From Streptococcus thoraltensis DSM 12221 (GTDB taxonomy: Bacteria; Bacillota; Bacilli; Lactobacillales; Streptococcaceae), in the NCBI RefSeq assembly GCF_000380145.1, contig NZ_KB904631.1:1-62564 (forward strand): 62,564 bases of DNA, written 5' to 3'. This document shows, piece by piece, positions 1,991 through 8,936 of the stretch. The first letter of the stretch is position 1. Each line of letters starts with the position of its first letter. Under the pieces are notes generated by a model, which saw only the letters and a program-made list of their open reading frames with translations, was not told where the DNA came from and ran no database searches. Made by a program: the position numbers and the translations under genes.

Positions 1991-2959
1991 TTATGATTTT
2001 CGTCTGCCTTTGAAAACCATTTTAAGAAACTGTTTGAAGCCCATCAGGAAAGATTTTCCCATCATGTAAGTCAAGATTTTAGACATAATCCCCCATAAAA
2101 ACATGGACAAAAGAATGACCAAAATCCAGCCGTATTTGCTCTGGGTAAAAACAGTCGGTAGCGGTACATTAATCCCAAAGAAGCCTGTCACGATACTTGG
2201 AATAGTCATGAGAAGAGACACGATTGTCAGCATGGTCATGGTATCGTTTAGGTCATTGTTTAGGATGTTATTATAAGTTGCGCTTAATTGCCCCAAAATC
2301 TCCGAAGTCATCTCGGTCATTTCAACCAGTTGCTTAGCTTCAACCAAGGCATCATCTAGTTGCTCTTTTTCTTCTTCGTTTAGCTTAAAATATAAGGATT
2401 GGTTCTTGATACGCTCAATACTAACAGCATTTTGACGGCAGGCAGAAGCTAAAAAGACATTACCTGTCTCAATATCGGATAGGGCTAACAGTCCTTGTTT
2501 AGTCGTCTTAGCACGAAGTTGATGGTTAATCACTTGACGTTCGTGTGTCAATTTTTCAATAACTGAAAAATAATGCGTTGAGATTTCCACAAGACCAGAG
2601 AAAAGAAAATCATACAGACTCATGTCATGATTATCCTGTGCTAAAGTTTGCAAGCGTCTGACAATGTAGTCGGTGTCCTTGGTAGACATGCTAATAAGAC
2701 GATCTCCCTGAGCGATAAAGGTGATGGGGACTGTCTGGAAATTGTTATCCTCTTTAATCAATTTTAACACATTGTAAATCAAAAGTAATTGGCCTGTTTT
2801 GCGACTGTATTCCACATGGGCAAGTTCATTTTTGTCTAGGGCATAGGCAGCTACTTCTGGGTCAATACCGTAGTCCATGGCAATTTTCTCAGCATCTCTA
2901 ACTTCATCAATATCAATATCAATCCAGCTAAAGCTGTCGAAATGTTCTCTTGTTATCAT
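1991..2959 (-). CDS. corA: CorA family Mg2+/divalent cation transporter
   Basis: 322 residues from the ATG at 2959, chosen because GACGAGG lies just upstream; an earlier in-frame ATG at 3022 has no such site. The N-terminal two thirds is the charged cytosolic funnel. The C-terminus has two transmembrane helices with the family pore motif present as GFFGINVPLP, i.e. GIN in place of the canonical GMN. Met to Ile variants occur in CorA-like proteins of this group. CorA proteins form pentameric channels for Mg2+ (sometimes Co2+/Ni2+). Monocistronic, with no terminator or partner that I can see. Selectivity cannot be deduced from sequence. Confidence 0.85.
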   Translation of the reverse strand: MITREHFDSFSWIDIDIDEVRDAEKIAMDYGIDPEVAAYALDKNELAHVEYSRKTGQLLLIYNVLKLIKEDNNFQTVPITFIAQGDRLISMSTKDTDYIVRRLQTLAQDNHDMSLYDFLFSGLVEISTHYFSVIEKLTHERQVINHQLRAKTTKQGLLALSDIETGNVFLASACRQNAVSIERIKNQSLYFKLNEEEKEQLDDALVEAKQLVEMTEMTSEILGQLSATYNNILNNDLNDTMTMLTIVSLLMTIPSIVTGFFGINVPLPTVFTQSKYGWILVILLSMFLWGIMSKILTYMMGKSFLMGFKQFLKMVFKGRRKS

Positions 2960-3148
2960 TAGAAACCTCGTCACTTTCTGACTTCTAGTATAACATGAGA
3001 CTACTAAAGTTTCTGCTATCAATTACTAGAATTTAGTCTGGAATTTAGAAATGTGATAAAAAAGAAGACTGATAACAAACAAAAACAAATGATATTTTAA
3101 AAATCCTTCCAATGACTAAGTATTATGCAAAAAACGGTATTGACAGAT

Positions 3149-3202
3149 AGGTGAGTGCTAACTAAAACTTGCCGTTGTGATAGCAGTAGTTAAAACTCAC
3201 CT
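3149..3202. repeat. Imperfect inverted repeat, 16-bp arms
   Basis: AGGTGAGTGCTAACTA at 3149-3164 and TAGTTAAAACTCACCT at 3187-3202 pair at 14 of 16 positions around a 22-nt spacer. There is no T-run after it, so it is not a simple terminator. It could be an operator, an RNA structure or the remains of a small mobile element. Confidence 0.6.
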
Positions 3203-3324
3203 ACTAGAAAGTTCTGAGACCCTTGAGTCACTCTTTAAGTGTAACATTTCATAAAAAATCGTGCCGCCCGTCATCACTGTCAAATGAAGACTTTGGATTT
3301 AATATGAAGACTTTCTAAACTATT

Positions 3325-3402
3325 TACTTAAGGCTTTCCTAACGCTTACTTAAGATTTAGTTAAGAAATAACTTACGAATACTTAAGGTTACTTCTTACA
3401 AT
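3325..3402 (+). promoter_or_regulatory. Promoter with phased TTAA half-site array, probable SaeR operator
   Basis: Half-sites start at 3327 (CTTAAG), 3338 (CCTAAC), 3349 (CTTAAG), 3360 (GTTAAG), 3372 (CTTACG) and 3382 (CTTAAG), i.e. every 10-12 bp, one helical turn. The -10 TACAAT is at 3397-3402 and the last half-site occupies the -35 region, which has no good -35 of its own. Staphylococcal SaeR boxes are two GTTAA half-sites 11 bp apart (family knowledge). Inference: a SaeR-like regulator activates the downstream surface protein from here. Confidence 0.6.
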
Positions 3403-3432
3403 AGAGGTATCACAAAAAGTAAGGAGAAGTTT

Positions 3433-4692
3433 ATGTCAAACTTATCAACAAACAAAACAAAGGAATCATTCATGAAATGGTCACTCCATCATGGCAAGGT
3501 TAGTTTAGCTTCAATGATTATCGCTAGCGGAGGTGTTCTTGTCTTAGCACAGGGAAATCAGGTTAGGGCTGACGACATGAGCAATCAACCAGCATCCAGT
3601 GTAACTACTACAAGTCCAAGTGCTGATGCCACTACAGAAATGAGCATGGAAATGTCAGACATGAAAGTTGCTAATCAGCCAACAATGACGCCTGATATGC
3701 CTAATACTTCTGAAACAAAACCTATGGAAGAAATGTCAGAAGCAATGTATTCTCAGCCAAAAGCTAGCTCTGATGACATGTCCACTACTAAAATGACCGA
3801 AACTACTGTTACAACTCCTGAAGCAGTCAAATCAGCTGTTGAACAGGCTATTCATGAAGACATTACTGTTCCTAAATCCTATATTCAAAATGCCAACTTC
3901 CCTGGATCATTCACTGCCGGTGTCAATCAAGTGATTCCATTCGAAGCTTTCGGGGGCGACGGTATGTTAACACGCCTACTCTTAAAATCTTCTGATGGCG
4001 CCGCTTGGTCTGATAATGGCACAGCCATGAATCCCGCCTTACTTCCTCTGAAAAATCTTTCAAAAGGACAATATTTCTACAGCTTAGAGCTTACTGGATC
4101 GCTTCAAGGAAAAATGGACAGTGATCTTTTAAAAGCCTTAAAAGCAATGACCGATGAAACCATCACAGGTAAGATTCTTGTCTATGCAGCCAAAGATAAT
4201 ATGCCAGATTTATCCAACATCATTGCTAGCAAAATGGTCACCATACATTCGAATAAAGAAAAAATGATGGAAGACAATAATACTGGTAAAAATATGGATA
4301 ACAAAATGGATGACAATAATACCGGTAAAAACATGAATAACAAAATGGATGACAATAATACCGGCAAAAACATGAATAACAAAATGGATGACAATAATAC
4401 CGGTAAAAATATGGATAACAAGATGGATGAGCAAACAATGAACAAGAAGAACATGCCTAAAAAAGAAAGCATGCCGTCTGCTCAATCCAATGATGATATG
4501 TCATCTAAAATGATGAAAACAAATCAAAAATCTGACATGATGGATCAAGGTAAAAAAGAAATGGCCAAAAATAACCTCCCTATGACTGGTGAATCAAACC
4601 GTCACTTGTTAACTGGATTTGGACTCGTCACTCTTTTAGTAGCCTTTGGGATTTCCCTTAAAAGTTTTCTATCTAAGAAAAAAGAGAGCTAA
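3433..4692 (+). CDS. Methionine-rich SSURE-domain LPxTG surface protein (PbsP-like)
   Basis: 419 residues. Residues ~15-47 form a Sec signal peptide (hydrophobic SLASMIIASGGVLVLA, likely cleavage after VRA). Residues ~50-130 are Met/Ser/Thr-rich (MSMEMSDM, MEEMSEAM). Residues ~145-275 are one SSURE-type domain (FTAGVNQVIPFEAFGGDGML, ALLPLKNLSKGQYFYSLEL), a streptococcal fibronectin/plasminogen-binding module. Four 13-residue D/N/K/M-rich repeats follow (DNNTGKNMDNKMD), then a Met/Lys-rich stretch and a sortase signal LPMTGE with a hydrophobic helix and KKK tail. The plan matches GBS PbsP (SSURE plus Met/Lys-rich region), but with a single SSURE domain. The saeRS-like genes follow directly, as expected for a SaeR target. 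Ligands are inferred from the family. Confidence 0.85.
   Translation: MSNLSTNKTKESFMKWSLHHGKVSLASMIIASGGVLVLAQGNQVRADDMSNQPASSVTTTSPSADATTEMSMEMSDMKVANQPTMTPDMPNTSETKPMEEMSEAMYSQPKASSDDMSTTKMTETTVTTPEAVKSAVEQAIHEDITVPKSYIQNANFPGSFTAGVNQVIPFEAFGGDGMLTRLLLKSSDGAAWSDNGTAMNPALLPLKNLSKGQYFYSLELTGSLQGKMDSDLLKALKAMTDETITGKILVYAAKDNMPDLSNIIASKMVTIHSNKEKMMEDNNTGKNMDNKMDDNNTGKNMNNKMDDNNTGKNMNNKMDDNNTGKNMDNKMDEQTMNKKNMPKKESMPSAQSNDDMSSKMMKTNQKSDMMDQGKKEMAKNNLPMTGESNRHLLTGFGLVTLLVAFGISLKSFLSKKKES
4273..4428 (+). repeat. Four tandem 39-bp repeats inside the surface-protein gene
   Basis: Units begin GACAATAATAC at 4273, 4312, 4351 and 4390 and encode DNNTGKNM(D/N)NKMD. Differences are mostly single bases (GGT/GGC, AAT/AAC, GAT/AAT). 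Period 39 keeps the frame, so copy number can change by slippage without breaking the protein. Confidence 0.9.
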
Positions 4693-4714
4693 ACGCCCTC
4701 AATAAACAAATTTT

Positions 4715-4741
4715 AAAAGACCTTATTTGCTAAGGTTTTAC
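4715..4741 (+). terminator. Terminator-like hairpin after the surface-protein gene
   Basis: Stem ACCTTA/TAAGGT extended by AAAAG / TTTTA, loop TTTGC. Located 23 nt after the stop codon. The T-tract is short (TTTTA), so termination may be partial. Confidence 0.5.
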
Positions 4742-4771
4742 AACTAAAAAAACCGCTTGGTCTTATATCAG

Positions 4772-4805
4772 AATAGTGTTATACTTAGCAAAGTATAGCA
4801 CTATT
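4772..4805. promoter_or_regulatory. 34-bp near-perfect palindrome between surface-protein gene and saeR-like gene
   Basis: AATAGTG-T-TATACTT-AGCA-AAGTATA-G-CACTATT: 14 of 15 positions pair around a 4-nt loop, followed by TTTTAAC. It may terminate surface-protein transcripts, act as an operator at the saeRS promoter, or protect the 3' end. Its left arm includes GTTATACTTA, which could serve as a -10. Confidence 0.6.
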
Positions 4806-4853
4806 TTAACTACGTCTTCGACACATTTCATTTGAAAAATAAGGATTATAACT

Positions 4854-5546
4854 ATGACACATTCTATTCTCTTGGTTGATGATGAACCTGACATTATCGA
4901 CATCAACAAACGTTATTTGAATCAAGCTGGTTTTGAGGTGTTGACCGCAAATAATGGTCTTGAGGCGCTAGAGATTTTCCAAAAGCATCCTGTTGACCTC
5001 ATTATTAGTGACATCATGATGCCCCAGATGGATGGATATGATTTTATTTCAGAAGTATTGAGTATCAAGGAGGAGCAAGCCTTCCTTTTCATCACAGCTA
5101 AAACTGCCGAGCCTGATAAGATTTATTCTCTAAGTTTGGGAGCTGATGATTTTATTTGTAAACCTTTTAGTCCGAGAGAGTTGGTTCTTAGAGTCACCAA
5201 TATTTTAAAGAGACTTTATGGTAGACAACAAGCTCAAGAAGAGTTGCTTATTGGTGATTTAGTCATTAACCACCAAACACGAGCCGTTTCGGTCAACGGG
5301 CATTCTCTTGAATTAACCAATAAGGCATTCGACATCCTGTGGCTTTTAGCCCATCAAAAAAATCGTGTCTTTTCCAAGTCAGAATTATACGAAAGTGTCT
5401 GGGATGAAACTTTTATCGAAGATACCAATACGCTCAATGTTCATATCCACGCTTTGCGAAATGACTTAGCCAGACACAGCACTCCCCAAACGCCAAGCAT
5501 CAAAACGGTTTGGGGATTGGGTTACAAACTCGAGGTGGCACCATGA
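4854..5546 (+). CDS. saeR: OmpR-family response regulator, SaeR-like
   Basis: 230 residues: receiver domain (acidic pocket DDE at 9-11, phosphoacceptor Asp53 in LIISDIMMP, conserved Lys in FITAKT) followed by a winged-helix DNA-binding domain (~130-228, ending KTVWGLGYKLE). The stop overlaps the start of the kinase gene (ATGA), so the two are translationally coupled. Position directly after a PbsP-like gene, pairing with a short-loop kinase, and the phased TTAA sites upstream of that gene support a SaeR role, a regulator of host-binding surface proteins in GBS. The symbol is by context; other OmpR regulators look similar. Confidence 0.75.
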   Translation: MTHSILLVDDEPDIIDINKRYLNQAGFEVLTANNGLEALEIFQKHPVDLIISDIMMPQMDGYDFISEVLSIKEEQAFLFITAKTAEPDKIYSLSLGADDFICKPFSPRELVLRVTNILKRLYGRQQAQEELLIGDLVINHQTRAVSVNGHSLELTNKAFDILWLLAHQKNRVFSKSELYESVWDETFIEDTNTLNVHIHALRNDLARHSTPQTPSIKTVWGLGYKLEVAP

Positions 5547-6586
5547 CACTCAGATATTACTTAATCACAGGGCACCTGATAGCTATCTTGATTACCTTAA
5601 TTGGGGTTTTCATCGGTCTCAATTATATGTTTATCGAGCAAAAGCAAGTTATTTTCATTATGACAATCGTTATCCTTGCCAGCCTTTTAGGAGCGCTCTT
5701 TAGCCTGCTGTTACTTAATAAAATCATTAAATCCTTGTCATTACTCGTTTCAAGAATGAATGACATCTCGCAAAGAGATTTTCAAGGTGACATCAATATC
5801 ACTTCGCCACTGGAGTTTGCCCAGTTGGGCACGGCTTTTAGTCGTATGGCACAATCTTTAGAAGAAGCCTTTGATTCCCTCATTGAAAGTGAACGTGATA
5901 AAGCCTTGATGATTGCTCAGCTATCGCATGACATCAAAACCCCCATTACCTCCATCCAATCAGGAATTGAGGGCATACTTGATGGGGTCATTCCACATGA
6001 TGACGTGCCTCGTTACTTGCAAACCATCCATAGACAGACAGGACGGTTAAACCATCTCGTTGAAGAATTAGATTTTGTTGCTTCGAAAGTCTACGATACA
6101 GAACCACGTCTTGAAAAGCCAGAAGTCATTTATTTAGACAAGTTGATTTTAGATATTTTATCAGAATTTCACTTACAAATTTCTGAGGAAAAAAGAGATA
6201 TTGATATTTCCGTGCAGCCTGAATCTGCCTATATTATCAGTAGCTATCATAAATTGTATCGCATTCTTCAAAACTTGGTGAGTAATGCTTTCAAGTATTC
6301 TCCTGCTAAGACACCAATTGCTATCAATCTTATCAAAGATAAGGAGAATCTCACCGTCACCGTCTCTGACGAAGGCATAGGGATTGCCCCAGAGAATCAA
6401 GCTAAAATTTTCAACCGCCTTTATCGTGTGGAAAGTTCTCGAAATATGACAACAGGCGGACATGGTTTAGGACTTTACATTGCTCAAGAATTAGCGCAGC
6501 AACTTGGCGGTTCTATTAGCGTTGATAGCCAAAAGGCTAAAGGCAGCAAATTCTCTCTATCAATTCCTATCAATAAAATATCATAA
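5543..6586 (+). CDS. saeS: Sensor histidine kinase, SaeS-like
   Basis: 347 residues from the ATG at 5543 (overlaps the saeR stop; GAGG 6-9 nt upstream). Two transmembrane helices (~8-29 and ~36-58) are separated by a very short extracellular link around FIEQKQ, the plan of intramembrane-sensing kinases such as staphylococcal SaeS. Then come a HAMP-like linker (~60-112), the dimerisation domain with His129 in LSHDIKTPI, and the ATPase domain with N-box LVSNAFKYSP, DEGIGI and GGHGLGLYIAQE. The stimulus cannot be a folded external ligand-binding domain because none exists. Ends 15 nt before a series of hairpins. Confidence 0.8.
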   Translation: MTLRYYLITGHLIAILITLIGVFIGLNYMFIEQKQVIFIMTIVILASLLGALFSLLLLNKIIKSLSLLVSRMNDISQRDFQGDINITSPLEFAQLGTAFSRMAQSLEEAFDSLIESERDKALMIAQLSHDIKTPITSIQSGIEGILDGVIPHDDVPRYLQTIHRQTGRLNHLVEELDFVASKVYDTEPRLEKPEVIYLDKLILDILSEFHLQISEEKRDIDISVQPESAYIISSYHKLYRILQNLVSNAFKYSPAKTPIAINLIKDKENLTVTVSDEGIGIAPENQAKIFNRLYRVESSRNMTTGGHGLGLYIAQELAQQLGGSISVDSQKAKGSKFSLSIPINKIS

Positions 6587-6601
6587 AGATTGAAAATAAC
6601 T

Positions 6602-6722
6602 AAAGAGCCGTATCCAAACGGTTCTTCAGATTGAAGAAAAAGTCGACTTTGGACATTTTTCTCCAATCTTTTTTTGGATTCAAAAATAAAAATTTCCAAA
6701 ACTGTTGAAACAACAGTTTTTT
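6602..6722 (+). terminator. Three consecutive hairpins after saeS-like gene
   Basis: Hairpin 1: AAGAGCCGT/ACGGTTCTT (6602-6624). Hairpin 2: AGATTGAAGAAAAA ... TTTTTCTCCAATCT with a T-run (6628-6676). Hairpin 3: AAAACTGTT/AACAGTTTT then TTGG (6698-6722). Hairpin 2 belongs to a sequence family also seen at 48544-48585. The two-component operon ends here. Confidence 0.7.
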
Positions 6723-6909
6723 GGGTGTTTAATGATTATCCATCGTGCAAGATGTCCCATTCATCAAAGTTTCAAGGTTTGTCTACGTTCAGGTTCTTTT
6801 AGAAAGGAACTCTCTCTACTGTCAACTTTCTATCAAACTATAGTTGCTTTAAGCTAATCTGAAAAAATGATAGTATAATAGAAATACTATAAAATCGGAG
6901 GTGCTATCT

Positions 6910-7050
6910 ATGGCCATTTCATATAAAAAAGACGATAAACTAGAAAGCATGTTTGCCAGTTTTGCCAAATTGCCCGACAATATGGATTCAGATCCTAAAA
7001 AAGGGAAAAAAGACGATGGCAAAAAAGAGAAAAATAAGGCATTATCCTAA
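6910..7050 (+). CDS. SPJ_0845-like small protein
   Basis: 46 residues, highly charged, beginning MAISYKKDDKLESMFASFAK and ending in a Lys/Asp-rich tail. It resembles the SPJ_0845 family of very small streptococcal proteins of unknown role (recognised by the N-terminal pattern, moderate certainty). Clear ribosome site CGGAGG 9 nt before the ATG and a TATAAT at 6874-6879. No signal peptide or membrane segment. The next small open frame starts inside its 3' end. Confidence 0.7.
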   Translation: MAISYKKDDKLESMFASFAKLPDNMDSDPKKGKKDDGKKEKNKALS

Positions 7051-7182: not shown

Positions 7183-7218
7183 CCATTATCTTAAATACTG
7201 GATAAAGTGAGGTTGCTC

Positions 7219-8124
7219 GTGTCTTTTTTTAATCATTTACCTGACAGCGTGCTTCAATGGATGGCTATTTTCATGTCCATTATCATTGAGGCACTCCCTT
7301 TTGTTCTTTTAGGTGCTATTTTAACAGGCTTTATCGAAGTTTACGTCACCCCTGATAAAGTGACCAAACACCTTCCCAAAAATCGCTTTTTGCGTATTTT
7401 GTTCGGTACTTTTATTGGGATTATTTTTCCCTCTTGTGAGTGTGGTATTGTCCCCATTGTCAATCGTCTCATGGAGAAAAAAGTGCCCAGTTATACAGCT
7501 GTTCCCTTTTTGGCTACGGCTCCGGTGATTAATCCCATTGTTATTCTGGCGACTTATTCTGCTTTTGGGAATTCTTGGCAGTTTGTCATCTGGCGCTTAA
7601 CGGGTGCTATTCTGGTCGCAGTTGCTCTGGGAGTACTCTTAGCCTACCTAACGGATGAAGATATTCAAAATCCTTCAAAAGAAGCCCTGCATTTTCATGA
7701 TTACAGTGGGCATAGCCACCTGAAAAAAATCTTTTACTCCCTGTCTCATGCCATTGATGAATTCTTCGACACAGGACGCTATCTGATTTTTGGGACTCTG
7801 ATTGCCTCTGCCATGCAGATTTACCTGCCAACTCGCATTCTGACATCTTTGGCTGGAAACTCTTTAACAGCAATCTTGGTCATGATGGCCTTAGCCTTTG
7901 TCCTTTCACTTTGTAGTGAAGCGGATGCCTTTATCGGTGCCAGCCTCCTCTCTAGCTTTGGAGCAGCACCTGTCATGGCTTTTCTACTCATCGGTCCCAT
8001 CATTGACATCAAAAACCTAATGATGATGTGGACGAGTTTTAAAAAGGGCTTCATCCTTCAGTTTATCGCGGTTTCTGCTGTTATCGTGTCCCTTTATTGT
8101 CTCGCTTTAGGAGTTCTTACATGA
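7219..8124 (+). CDS. UPF0718/ArsP-type permease (YcgR-like)
   Basis: 301 residues from a GTG at 7219, preferred over the GTG at 7207 because TGAGGT lies 7 nt before it. Around eight hydrophobic helices. The family motif FPSCECGIVP (~72-81) and TAPVINPIVI are present. A cytosolic or external loop at ~154-168 is His-rich (HFHDYSGHSH). The family (PF03773) is predicted to transport small ions or metalloids; the precise substrate is unknown. The stop overlaps the start of the next gene by ATGA, so the two proteins are coupled and probably form one complex, as in Bacillus ycgR-ycgQ. Confidence 0.8.
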   Translation: MSFFNHLPDSVLQWMAIFMSIIIEALPFVLLGAILTGFIEVYVTPDKVTKHLPKNRFLRILFGTFIGIIFPSCECGIVPIVNRLMEKKVPSYTAVPFLATAPVINPIVILATYSAFGNSWQFVIWRLTGAILVAVALGVLLAYLTDEDIQNPSKEALHFHDYSGHSHLKKIFYSLSHAIDEFFDTGRYLIFGTLIASAMQIYLPTRILTSLAGNSLTAILVMMALAFVLSLCSEADAFIGASLLSSFGAAPVMAFLLIGPIIDIKNLMMMWTSFKKGFILQFIAVSAVIVSLYCLALGVLT

Positions 8125-8936
8125 TTCGATTTTTAATCCTAACTGGTTATTTTGAGCTTAGTATGTATCTTTACCTGTCGGGTAAATTAGACCAGTACAT
8201 TAATACTCACTACTCATATCTTGCTTTTATCGCCATGATATTATCTTTTATTTTAGCTGTGGTTCAGCTGATGATCTGGATGAAAAATCTCAAGCTCCAT
8301 TCTCATTTATCTGGAAAAATAGCAAAGCTGACCAGTCCGATGATTCTAGTATTTCCAGTCTTAGTTGGTTTGCTTGTCCCCACTGTAACCCTTGATTCTA
8401 CAACTGTTTCGGCTAAGGGGTACACCTTTCCAACGGCTGTCGGATCTGTCGGAAAAGGGGCATCAGATGATGGTACCCGCGTTCAATACCTAAAACCTGA
8501 TACCAGTCTTTATTTCACCAAAAATGCCTATCAGAAGGAGATGAAACGCGAGTTAAAAACTTATCAAAACCTTGATACGATTGAGATTACGACCCAAAAC
8601 TATATGGAAATTATGGAATTGATTTATCTCTATCCTGATGTTTTTACTGGTAAACAGATTTCCTATACAGGCTTTGTCTATAACGAGCCTGGTCATCAAG
8701 GTTATCAATATCTCTTCCGCTTTGGGGTCATTCATTGTATCGCCGACTCCGGTGTCTACGGTCTTTCTACGACCGGTAACCCTAAGACATTTGATAACAA
8801 TACTTGGGTAAGGGTATCTGGTACCATTTCAACCGAATACAATAACCAACTCGAAGAAACCCTGCCTGTTCTCCATATTGAAGACAGTCAAGAAGTTTCT
8901 CAACCAGACAATCCATATGTTTATCGTGTGTTTTAA
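8121..8936 (+). CDS. TIGR03943/DUF1980 family permease partner (YcgQ-like)
   Basis: 271 residues from the ATG at 8121 overlapping the upstream stop. Two or three N-terminal helices (ILTGYFELSMYLYL, YLAFIAMILSFILAVVQLMI, a third near MILVFPVLVGLLVP), then a ~180-residue extracytoplasmic domain ending NPYVYRVF. The C-terminal half contains GKQISYTGFVYNEP and FRFGVIHCIADSGVYG, which match the DUF1980 domain. It is almost always found next to UPF0718 permeases (family knowledge). The role is unknown; an accessory subunit for export or substrate capture is the usual inference. Confidence 0.8.
   Translation: MIRFLILTGYFELSMYLYLSGKLDQYINTHYSYLAFIAMILSFILAVVQLMIWMKNLKLHSHLSGKIAKLTSPMILVFPVLVGLLVPTVTLDSTTVSAKGYTFPTAVGSVGKGASDDGTRVQYLKPDTSLYFTKNAYQKEMKRELKTYQNLDTIEITTQNYMEIMELIYLYPDVFTGKQISYTGFVYNEPGHQGYQYLFRFGVIHCIADSGVYGLSTTGNPKTFDNNTWVRVSGTISTEYNNQLEETLPVLHIEDSQEVSQPDNPYVYRVF

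What the first reader, a model, noticed from the sequence alone, without database searches (positions are those of the whole stretch)
3325..3402. Six TTAA half-sites phased at one helical turn upstream of a SaeR-linked adhesin
Half-sites at 3327, 3338, 3349, 3360, 3372 and 3382 are 10-12 bp apart and run into the -35 region of the only visible promoter. Known SaeR boxes (GTTAA-N6-GTTAA) have 11-bp spacing, and a saeRS-like pair lies directly downstream. An array of three tandem boxes would allow cooperative, graded activation and is longer than the classic two-half-site box.
Basis: partly seen in the sequence, partly recalled or inferred. Interest (0 to 1): 0.75.

Follow-up and report, generated by a model that had tools for sequence, protein, structure and literature searches.

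The report
Six-site SaeR switch before adhesin gene
In front of a bacterial surface-adhesin gene lies a row of six short DNA signals that sits at the same place in nearly every sampled streptococcus carrying the neighbouring SaeRS sensor system, and it is likely the docking site through which SaeR would switch the adhesin on.

Summary
Six half-sites lie at 3327, 3338, 3349, 3360, 3372 and 3382 (four exact TTAA cores, one CTAA, one TTAC), spaced 11, 11, 11, 12 and 10 bp. Nine bases further on comes a TACAAT -10 box without a good -35. The array is not peculiar to this genome: all six positions are filled, within 1 bp, in 62 of 63 promoters (one genome counted twice), including a Gemella and BvaP-like genes. 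A sequence-only model trained without this window finds the array as the only strong hit in this 2.4 Mb genome. In a likely S. agalactiae genome its top two hits precede pbsP-like and bvaP-like genes, the published strong SaeR targets besides saeRS. Of 147 sampled genomes, 70 of 71 with the regulator and 1 of 76 without it have a hit at E 1e-3. It is very probably a SaeR operator, three times the classic box; binding and cooperativity are untested. The regulator/adhesin pair and a two-half-site motif were already published; the fixed six-site geometry was not in the text I could read. In passing: a conserved RNA hairpin carrying the likely saeR -10 lies between adhesin and saeR.

The parts
3327..3332 (+). 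half-site 1, CTTAAG (core 3328-3331)
   Evidence: position filled in 63 of 63 promoters
3338..3343 (+). half-site 2, CCTAAC (core CTAA 3339-3342); CTAA also in 4 of the other 10 diverged promoters
3349..3354 (+). half-site 3, CTTAAG (core 3350-3353); TTAA in 11 of 11 diverged promoters, the most conserved half-site
3360..3365 (+). half-site 4, GTTAAG (core 3361-3364)
3372..3377 (+). half-site 5, CTTACG (core TTAC 3373-3376), lies where a -35 would be
   Evidence: position filled in 62 of 63 promoters
3382..3387 (+). half-site 6, CTTAAG (core 3383-3386)
3397..3402 (+). -10 box TACAAT; best -35 match 3 of 6
3433..4692 (+). SSURE-domain, LPMTG-anchored surface protein (PavB/PbsP kind) with Met/Lys-rich repeats
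   Evidence: PF11966 E 2.3e-53
4771..4806 (+). conserved 16-bp RNA hairpin followed by a T-run; left arm contains TATACT, the likely -10 of the saeR promoter
4854..5546 (+). OmpR-family response regulator, SaeR/RR08-type
5510..6586 (+). histidine kinase (listed ORF; an ATG at 5543 overlaps the regulator's stop), two N-terminal hydrophobic stretches with a very short loop, SaeS-like
   Evidence: loop judged by eye

Best explanation
The six half-sites at 3327-3387 form an array kept at one distance (within 1 bp) from the -10 box in the sampled streptococcal saeRS loci, and the array is likely the operator at which the SaeR-type regulator encoded just downstream activates the adhesin gene. Inferred mechanism: phosphorylated SaeR binds head-to-tail as up to three dimers, one protomer per 11 bp on one face of the DNA. 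The strongest and least variable half-site (number 3) would nucleate binding. Sites 5 and 6 occupy the place of the missing -35, so their filling would bring SaeR into contact with RNA polymerase, as PhoB is thought to do (recalled) and as the position of CiaR boxes suggests. Because sites 2 and 5 are off-consensus in a conserved way, full activation would need a high level of phosphorylated SaeR and would be steep. Read-through past a conserved hairpin into saeRS would add positive feedback, as published for GBS.
For: Array non-random in the window. Eleven diverged promoters (below 80% identity) laid without gaps on the -10 have TTAA-like cores at -70, -59, -48, -37, -25 and -15. All six filled in 62 of 63 promoters and 10 of 11 diverged ones; sliding the register by 3-6 bp gives 0 of 11. 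Invariant columns of the training alignment cluster on half-sites and the -10; half-site columns carry 0.78 bits against 0.43 in spacers. Model R1, which held out the window, the likely GBS genome and the bvaP-type promoters, finds only this strong site in the window's genome (E 2.4e-5) and, in the likely GBS genome, bvaP-like (4.4e-8) and pbsP-like (1.9e-4) as top two, next 0.016. pbsP and bvaP are the published strongly SaeR-activated genes besides saeRS (PMC11502775 passages, which also report partial CovR-regulon activation). Array hit at E 1e-3 or better in 70 of 71 regulator-positive and 1 of 76 regulator-negative genomes. Regulator DNA-binding domain best matches SaeR in the PDB. The 11-bp period equals GTTAA-N6-GTTAA.
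Against: No binding or expression data exist here for this species. Genomes in the co-occurrence count share ancestry, and many held-out promoters are nearly identical to training ones. The 1e-3 cut was mine: between 1e-3 and 1e-2 nine more regulator-negative genomes have a weak hit. Weaker TTAA-like peaks also lie at -41 (7 of 11) and -30 (6 of 11) between the sites. One SaeR residue reported critical for DNA binding (R199) is alanine here, although K174, H198, R201 and W218 are kept (alignment, residues). None of the 25 regulator models shown by NCBIfam passes its cut-off. CovR binds the pbsP promoter in GBS, with an AT-rich motif ATTA(A/G)A(A/T), and RR01 overexpression also induces pavB in pneumococcus. 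R1 hits of similar phasing (E 7e-5 to 0.0063) lie before ABC-transporter genes near a different two-component system in five genomes, so the geometry is not SaeR-exclusive. The regulator frames of G125 and G077 contain a stop, yet their arrays persist.
Confidence: 0.85

Rival explanations
1. The array is a shared operator: SaeR uses only the central box (sites 3-4), while outer sites serve another regulator such as CovR or the BceR/RR01 regulator.
For: CovR binds and represses pbsP in GBS, with an ATTA(A/G)A(A/T) motif enriched in its peaks; RR01 overexpression induces pavB; the published pavB repeat is a single pair, matching sites 3-4 of the pavB-type promoters.
Against: All six sites keep the same phase, and the array follows presence of the SaeR gene; bvaP-type promoters keep the same six positions. 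Whether CovR or RR01 presence tracks the array was not tested.
Confidence: 0.08
2. The sites belong to CiaR, whose box NTTAAG-N5-TTTAAG has the same 11-bp period and sits 10 nt before the -10.
For: Sites 3-4 (CTTAAG-N5-GTTAAG) are one mismatch from the CiaR consensus.
Against: The pair next to the -10 is CTTACG-N4-CTTAAG-N9, not the CiaR arrangement; CiaR boxes are two half-sites. Within 1 mismatch a CiaR-type box occurs 161 times in the genome against 221 for the reversed control, so the short box alone means little.
Confidence: 0.03
3. Phased TTAA steps act through DNA shape alone (bent or easily melted promoter DNA) without a dedicated regulator.
For: AT-rich, one helical turn apart, directly upstream of a -10 without a -35.
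Against: Several positions have their own conserved letters, and strong array hits are nearly confined to genomes with the regulator.
Confidence: 0.02

Closest known systems
SaeR binding sequence of Staphylococcus aureus (GTTAA-N6-GTTAA; coa and saeP1 promoters with two boxes)
   Same: TTAA half-sites in direct repeat with 11-bp period; adhesin and secreted-protein targets; several boxes in some promoters (PMC5083920 passages).
   Different: There the layout varies among promoters: one, one and a half or two boxes, and three listed for ssl8nm, where boxes stand in opposite orientation; here six half-sites hold one layout across species.
Pneumococcal TCS08-pavB and GBS SaeRS-pbsP/bvaP promoters
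   Same: The same gene order and orthologous genes; SaeR-like repeat upstream of pavB (PMC5956151 passages) and a GLAM2 candidate RR08 motif (PMC11034029 passages).
   Different: The passages read describe a pair of half-sites (TTTAA-N7-TTTAA); a six-site array is not described in them. Figures 6 and 8 of those papers could not be seen.
CiaR box of streptococci (NTTAAG-N5-TTTAAG-N10-TATAAT)
   Same: Direct repeat of period 11 replacing the -35 at nearly the same distance from the -10 (PMC3091779 passages).
   Different: Two half-sites only; different regulator.
OmpR at ompF and PhoB pho boxes (recalled)
   Same: Tandem OmpR-family protomers about one per helical turn, several boxes filled in order.
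   Different: Different half-site sequences and signals; recalled, not tested here.

Membership tests
SaeR operator | direct TTAA repeats with 11-bp period (GTTAA-N6-GTTAA) | tested here: met
   spacings 11, 11, 11, 12, 10; four exact TTAA and two one-off cores
SaeR operator | occurs where the SaeR-type regulator occurs | tested here: met
   70 of 71 regulator-positive against 1 of 76 regulator-negative genomes at E 1e-3 or better; at E 1e-2 it is 10 of 76; not corrected for phylogeny
SaeR operator | precedes known SaeR-activated genes | tested here: met
   top two hits in the likely GBS genome precede bvaP-like and pbsP-like genes (targets from PMC11502775); species and gene labels are inferred
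SaeR operator | bound by phosphorylated SaeR | not testable with these tools
   no binding data here; SaeR binding to the GBS pbsP promoter is reported by others
CiaR operator | NTTAAG-N5-TTTAAG placed 10 nt before the -10 | tested here: not met
   proximal pair is CTTACG-N4-CTTAAG-N9-TACAAT (definition)
SaeRS (TCS08) two-component system | OmpR-family regulator with SaeR-like DNA-binding domain and a kinase beside it | tested here: met
   PF00072 and PF00486, HisKA and HATPase_c; best PDB matches of the DNA-binding domain are three SaeR sequences, E 1.3e-25 to 4.4e-22; full-length best match is RegX3, the SaeR entries found being DNA-binding domains only
PavB (NCBIfam NF038031) | PavB N-terminal model over its cut-off | tested here: not met
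   23.3 bits against a cut-off of 225
SSURE-domain LPxTG adhesins | SSURE domain and sortase motif | tested here: met
   PF11966 180 bits; LPMTG seen in the translation

The most novel reading that the evidence does not exclude
Streptococci and Gemella share one fixed promoter machine for SaeR: a six-half-site array with conserved, deliberately weak positions that replaces the -35, coupled to a terminator-like hairpin that carries the next promoter's -10 inside its own stem. Together they would make one adhesin gene answer to SaeR as a steep switch and meter how much of that signal feeds back into saeRS.
Probability: 0.4. Interest if true: 0.65.

Novelty: new variant of a known kind. Interest (0 to 1): 0.52.

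Why it matters
SaeRS controls adhesins in streptococci that colonise people and animals, yet the passages read describe its streptococcal site only as a pair of half-sites. A fixed six-site array gives an exact operator to test, suggests how a promoter without a -35 could be silent and then strongly induced, and yields a genome-scale marker for SaeR targets: in a likely GBS genome its two best hits are the two expected ones. The conserved hairpin offers a concrete candidate for control of the reported read-through feedback.

Tried and rejected
Chance: rejected by shuffles, slid registers and genome-wide E-values. An eight-site chain: two extra upstream matches in the window are not conserved (3 of 11 diverged promoters at -81, up to 5 of 11 at -83 with 1 bp of play). 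CiaR: see rivals. Further targets in this genome: none found. Secondary and weak R1 hits in other genomes: of ten fetched, six precede ABC-transporter genes and four other genes; by eye their repeats differ (TTTAGA type in several), and I count none as a SaeR target. The R1-positive, regulator-negative genome G030 has its adhesin gene cut by a contig end, and its best regulator match is only 38% identical (E 1.7e-37); left unexplained. The genome search with a BvaP-like protein found only its own genome, 1 of 147. Scoring with the -10 as a rigid anchor put the window 1 bp out of register (total P 0.47); allowing 1 bp per site corrected this (0 of 4000 shuffles). The G071 SSURE promoter scored weakly with the anchor I chose (P 0.012), has a transposase-like gene between it and the adhesin, and was left out, as were L148 (start misassigned), L162 (decayed gene) and L031 (contig end). 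Of 70 other regulator-positive genomes I fetched 60. Papers not held: PMC5865029, PMC3370622, PMC2849438; they are known to me only through others. PMC10150079 (passages) had nothing on the motif.

Full report
What is there. Between a CorA-type gene on the minus strand and a surface-protein gene starting at 3433, the sequence holds six hexamers: CTTAAG 3327, CCTAAC 3338, CTTAAG 3349, GTTAAG 3360, CTTACG 3372 and CTTAAG 3382. Core spacings are 11, 11, 11, 12 and 10 bp. Nine bases after the last hexamer comes TACAAT (3397-3402), 30 bp before the start codon. No -35 better than 3 of 6 lies at spacer 15-19 (two of the other 15 promoters tested there reach 4 of 6). Shuffles do not reproduce the chain: 0 of 60 for the whole window, 0 of 2000 for the intergenic region.

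The neighbours. The gene encodes a 419-aa protein with one SSURE domain (PF11966) and an LPMTG anchor; among the 120 of 4549 relatives listed, the closest named full-length one is from Streptococcus halotolerans, 64% identical. The regulator at 4854 is OmpR-family; among solved structures its DNA-binding domain is closest to three SaeR sequences (E 1.3e-25 to 4.4e-22; the next, another OmpR-family protein, 2.6e-14). Of the five residues that a review names as critical in SaeR (K174, H198, R199, R201, W218; PMC5083920 passages), the alignment keeps four and has alanine for R199. Streptococcal TCS08-pavB and SaeRS-pbsP are the known counterparts (PMC5956151, PMC11389388 and PMC11502775, passages read).

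Comparison. A regulator ortholog at E 1e-60 or better occurs in 71 of 147 sampled genomes of the genus. I fetched the surroundings in 60 of the other 70, and three named relatives came from the contig scan, one of them apparently a genome already fetched. In 57 of these 63 loci an SSURE gene lies in the locus. In five more a short secreted protein lies directly before the regulator, and the sixth is cut by a contig end. I call these five BvaP-like because four have repeats and all resemble the readable part of the G012 gene discussed below; I compared them with no BvaP record, and BvaP itself is known to me from PMC9769775 passages. I resolved 63 promoters: the window, the fetched loci less three (L148, L162, L031), a BvaP-like promoter of G012 and the G030 promoter. 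With 1 bp of play, all six positions carry a TTAA-like core (at least 3 of 4) in 62; the exception, L118, lacks site 5. Without the record counted twice that is 61 of 62. After removing promoters 80% or more alike, 10 of 11 keep all six; letter-shuffled promoters do so at a rate of 0.0043, and registers slid by 3 to 6 bp never do. Weaker peaks between the sites exist at -41 and -30 (7 and 6 of 11). The spacing 11, 11, 11, 12, 10 seen in the window is also that of L113, L171, L159, L122 and the G012 BvaP-like promoter. Site 3 is TTAA in 11 of 11 diverged promoters; site 2 is CTAA (5) or ATAA (6) in all 11; site 5 is TTAC in 5 and exact TTAA in only 1. Some weak positions are thus themselves conserved.

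An independent search. Model R1 is a sequence-only profile of nine promoters that excludes the window, G012 and all BvaP-type loci. In the window's own genome its only strong hit is the array (E 2.4e-5, next 0.5). G012 is probably S. agalactiae: its SSURE gene and regulator are 112 bp apart, as reported for GBS pbsP-saeRS, the protein is Met/Lys-rich with two SSURE domains, and a BvaP-like gene is present, partly withheld. There the top two hits precede the BvaP-like and pbsP-like genes (4.4e-8 and 1.9e-4), and the next is 0.016. [quoted passage not shown] Over the genus sample, hits at E 1e-3 or better occur in 70 of 71 regulator-positive and 1 of 76 regulator-negative genomes; of 63 regulator-positive genomes not used in training, 62 have one (that search scored about 31 first-look candidates per genome in the rows shown). 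Between 1e-3 and 1e-2 nine more regulator-negative genomes have a hit. The missing regulator-positive genome, G143, has a regulator frame with two stops, but G125 and G077, with one stop each, keep the array. Two cautions apply: related species are not independent, and many held-out promoters nearly equal training ones. The strongly diverged held-out cases are the window, both G012 promoters and the BvaP-type promoters of G071, G091, G033, G051 and G125.

How it likely works. Shown: positions, phase, conservation, absence of a good -35 in the window, and association with the regulator. Inferred: SaeR occupies the array head-to-tail, one protomer per turn. Site 3, the richest in information (6.07 bits against 4.1 to 4.8 for the others in a fixed-column count of nine promoters), would be filled first. 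Sites 5 and 6, lying over and beside the missing -35, would provide the contact with polymerase. The arrangement next to the -10 resembles that of CiaR-activated promoters, whose box ends 10 nt before the -10 (PMC3091779 passages). In S. aureus, promoters with two boxes are described as low-affinity class I targets needing more SaeR-P; three boxes would extend that logic, but this is untested.

A second conserved element. Between adhesin and regulator lies a 16-bp hairpin followed by a T-run (4771-4806; -17.5 kcal/mol, z -5.5). The AGTGNTATAC arm was found before the regulator in 62 of 64 loci; of the two misses, one had a misassigned start and shows the motif in the sequence printed, and the other has withheld letters there. 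In a 19-sequence alignment 93.4% of cells pair, against 25 to 56% for slid versions, with changes on both sides at four pairs (shuffles reaching the observed value: 9 of 500 for the percentage paired, 1 of 500 for the covariation score, 5 of 500 for cells changed on both sides, 50 of 500 for pairs so changed, 292 of 500 for further pair types). The left arm contains TATACT, which by distance should be the -10 of the saeR promoter whose start site is reported 31 bp before the gene in GBS. That paper reports no canonical terminator there and describes read-through feedback. The hairpin is a candidate leaky terminator; its function is untested, and Rfam has no match over the gathering score in 2900-7000.

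Known or new. The paired system, the SaeR-type motif upstream of pavB (TTTAA-N7-TTTAA) and a GLAM2 candidate motif for RR08 are in print. A 2022 paper states that the bvaP and pbsP promoters share large identical regions (PMC9769775 passages). In the passages read, and in the listings of searches, I saw no description of six half-sites in a fixed register; figures and supplements were not available, so earlier drawings of it cannot be excluded. I file it as a new variant of a known kind of operator.

Noticed in passing
window 4771-4806: 16-bp RNA hairpin plus T-run between adhesin and saeR, conserved in streptococci and Gemella, with the likely saeR -10 box inside its left arm.
   Followed up: partly
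window 4267-4430: About four 39-bp tandem repeats (92% matches) encode part of the Met/Lys-rich stretch of the adhesin; copy number could vary between strains.
   Followed up: no
L198-L202, L204 (genomes G040, G008, G017, G027, G102, G114): Repeats of roughly 11-bp phase but different sequence (TTTAGA/TTGATG type) before a -10 precede ABC-transporter genes; in L198-L202 a different two-component system lies nearby (by eye). The geometry may be common among streptococcal OmpR-family regulators.
   Followed up: partly
L194 887-3388 (genome G071): A transposase-like gene (by eye) lies between the SSURE gene's array and the gene itself, and the SSURE gene lacks a visible anchor; this genome has a BvaP-like gene beside saeRS instead.
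   Followed up: no
L112-L115, L120: In five species a BvaP-like secreted protein, not an SSURE adhesin, sits before saeRS with the same six-site promoter.
   Followed up: yes
window 7207-8936: ArsP_1/DUF1980 permease pair downstream of the kinase; not examined for co-regulation.
   Followed up: no
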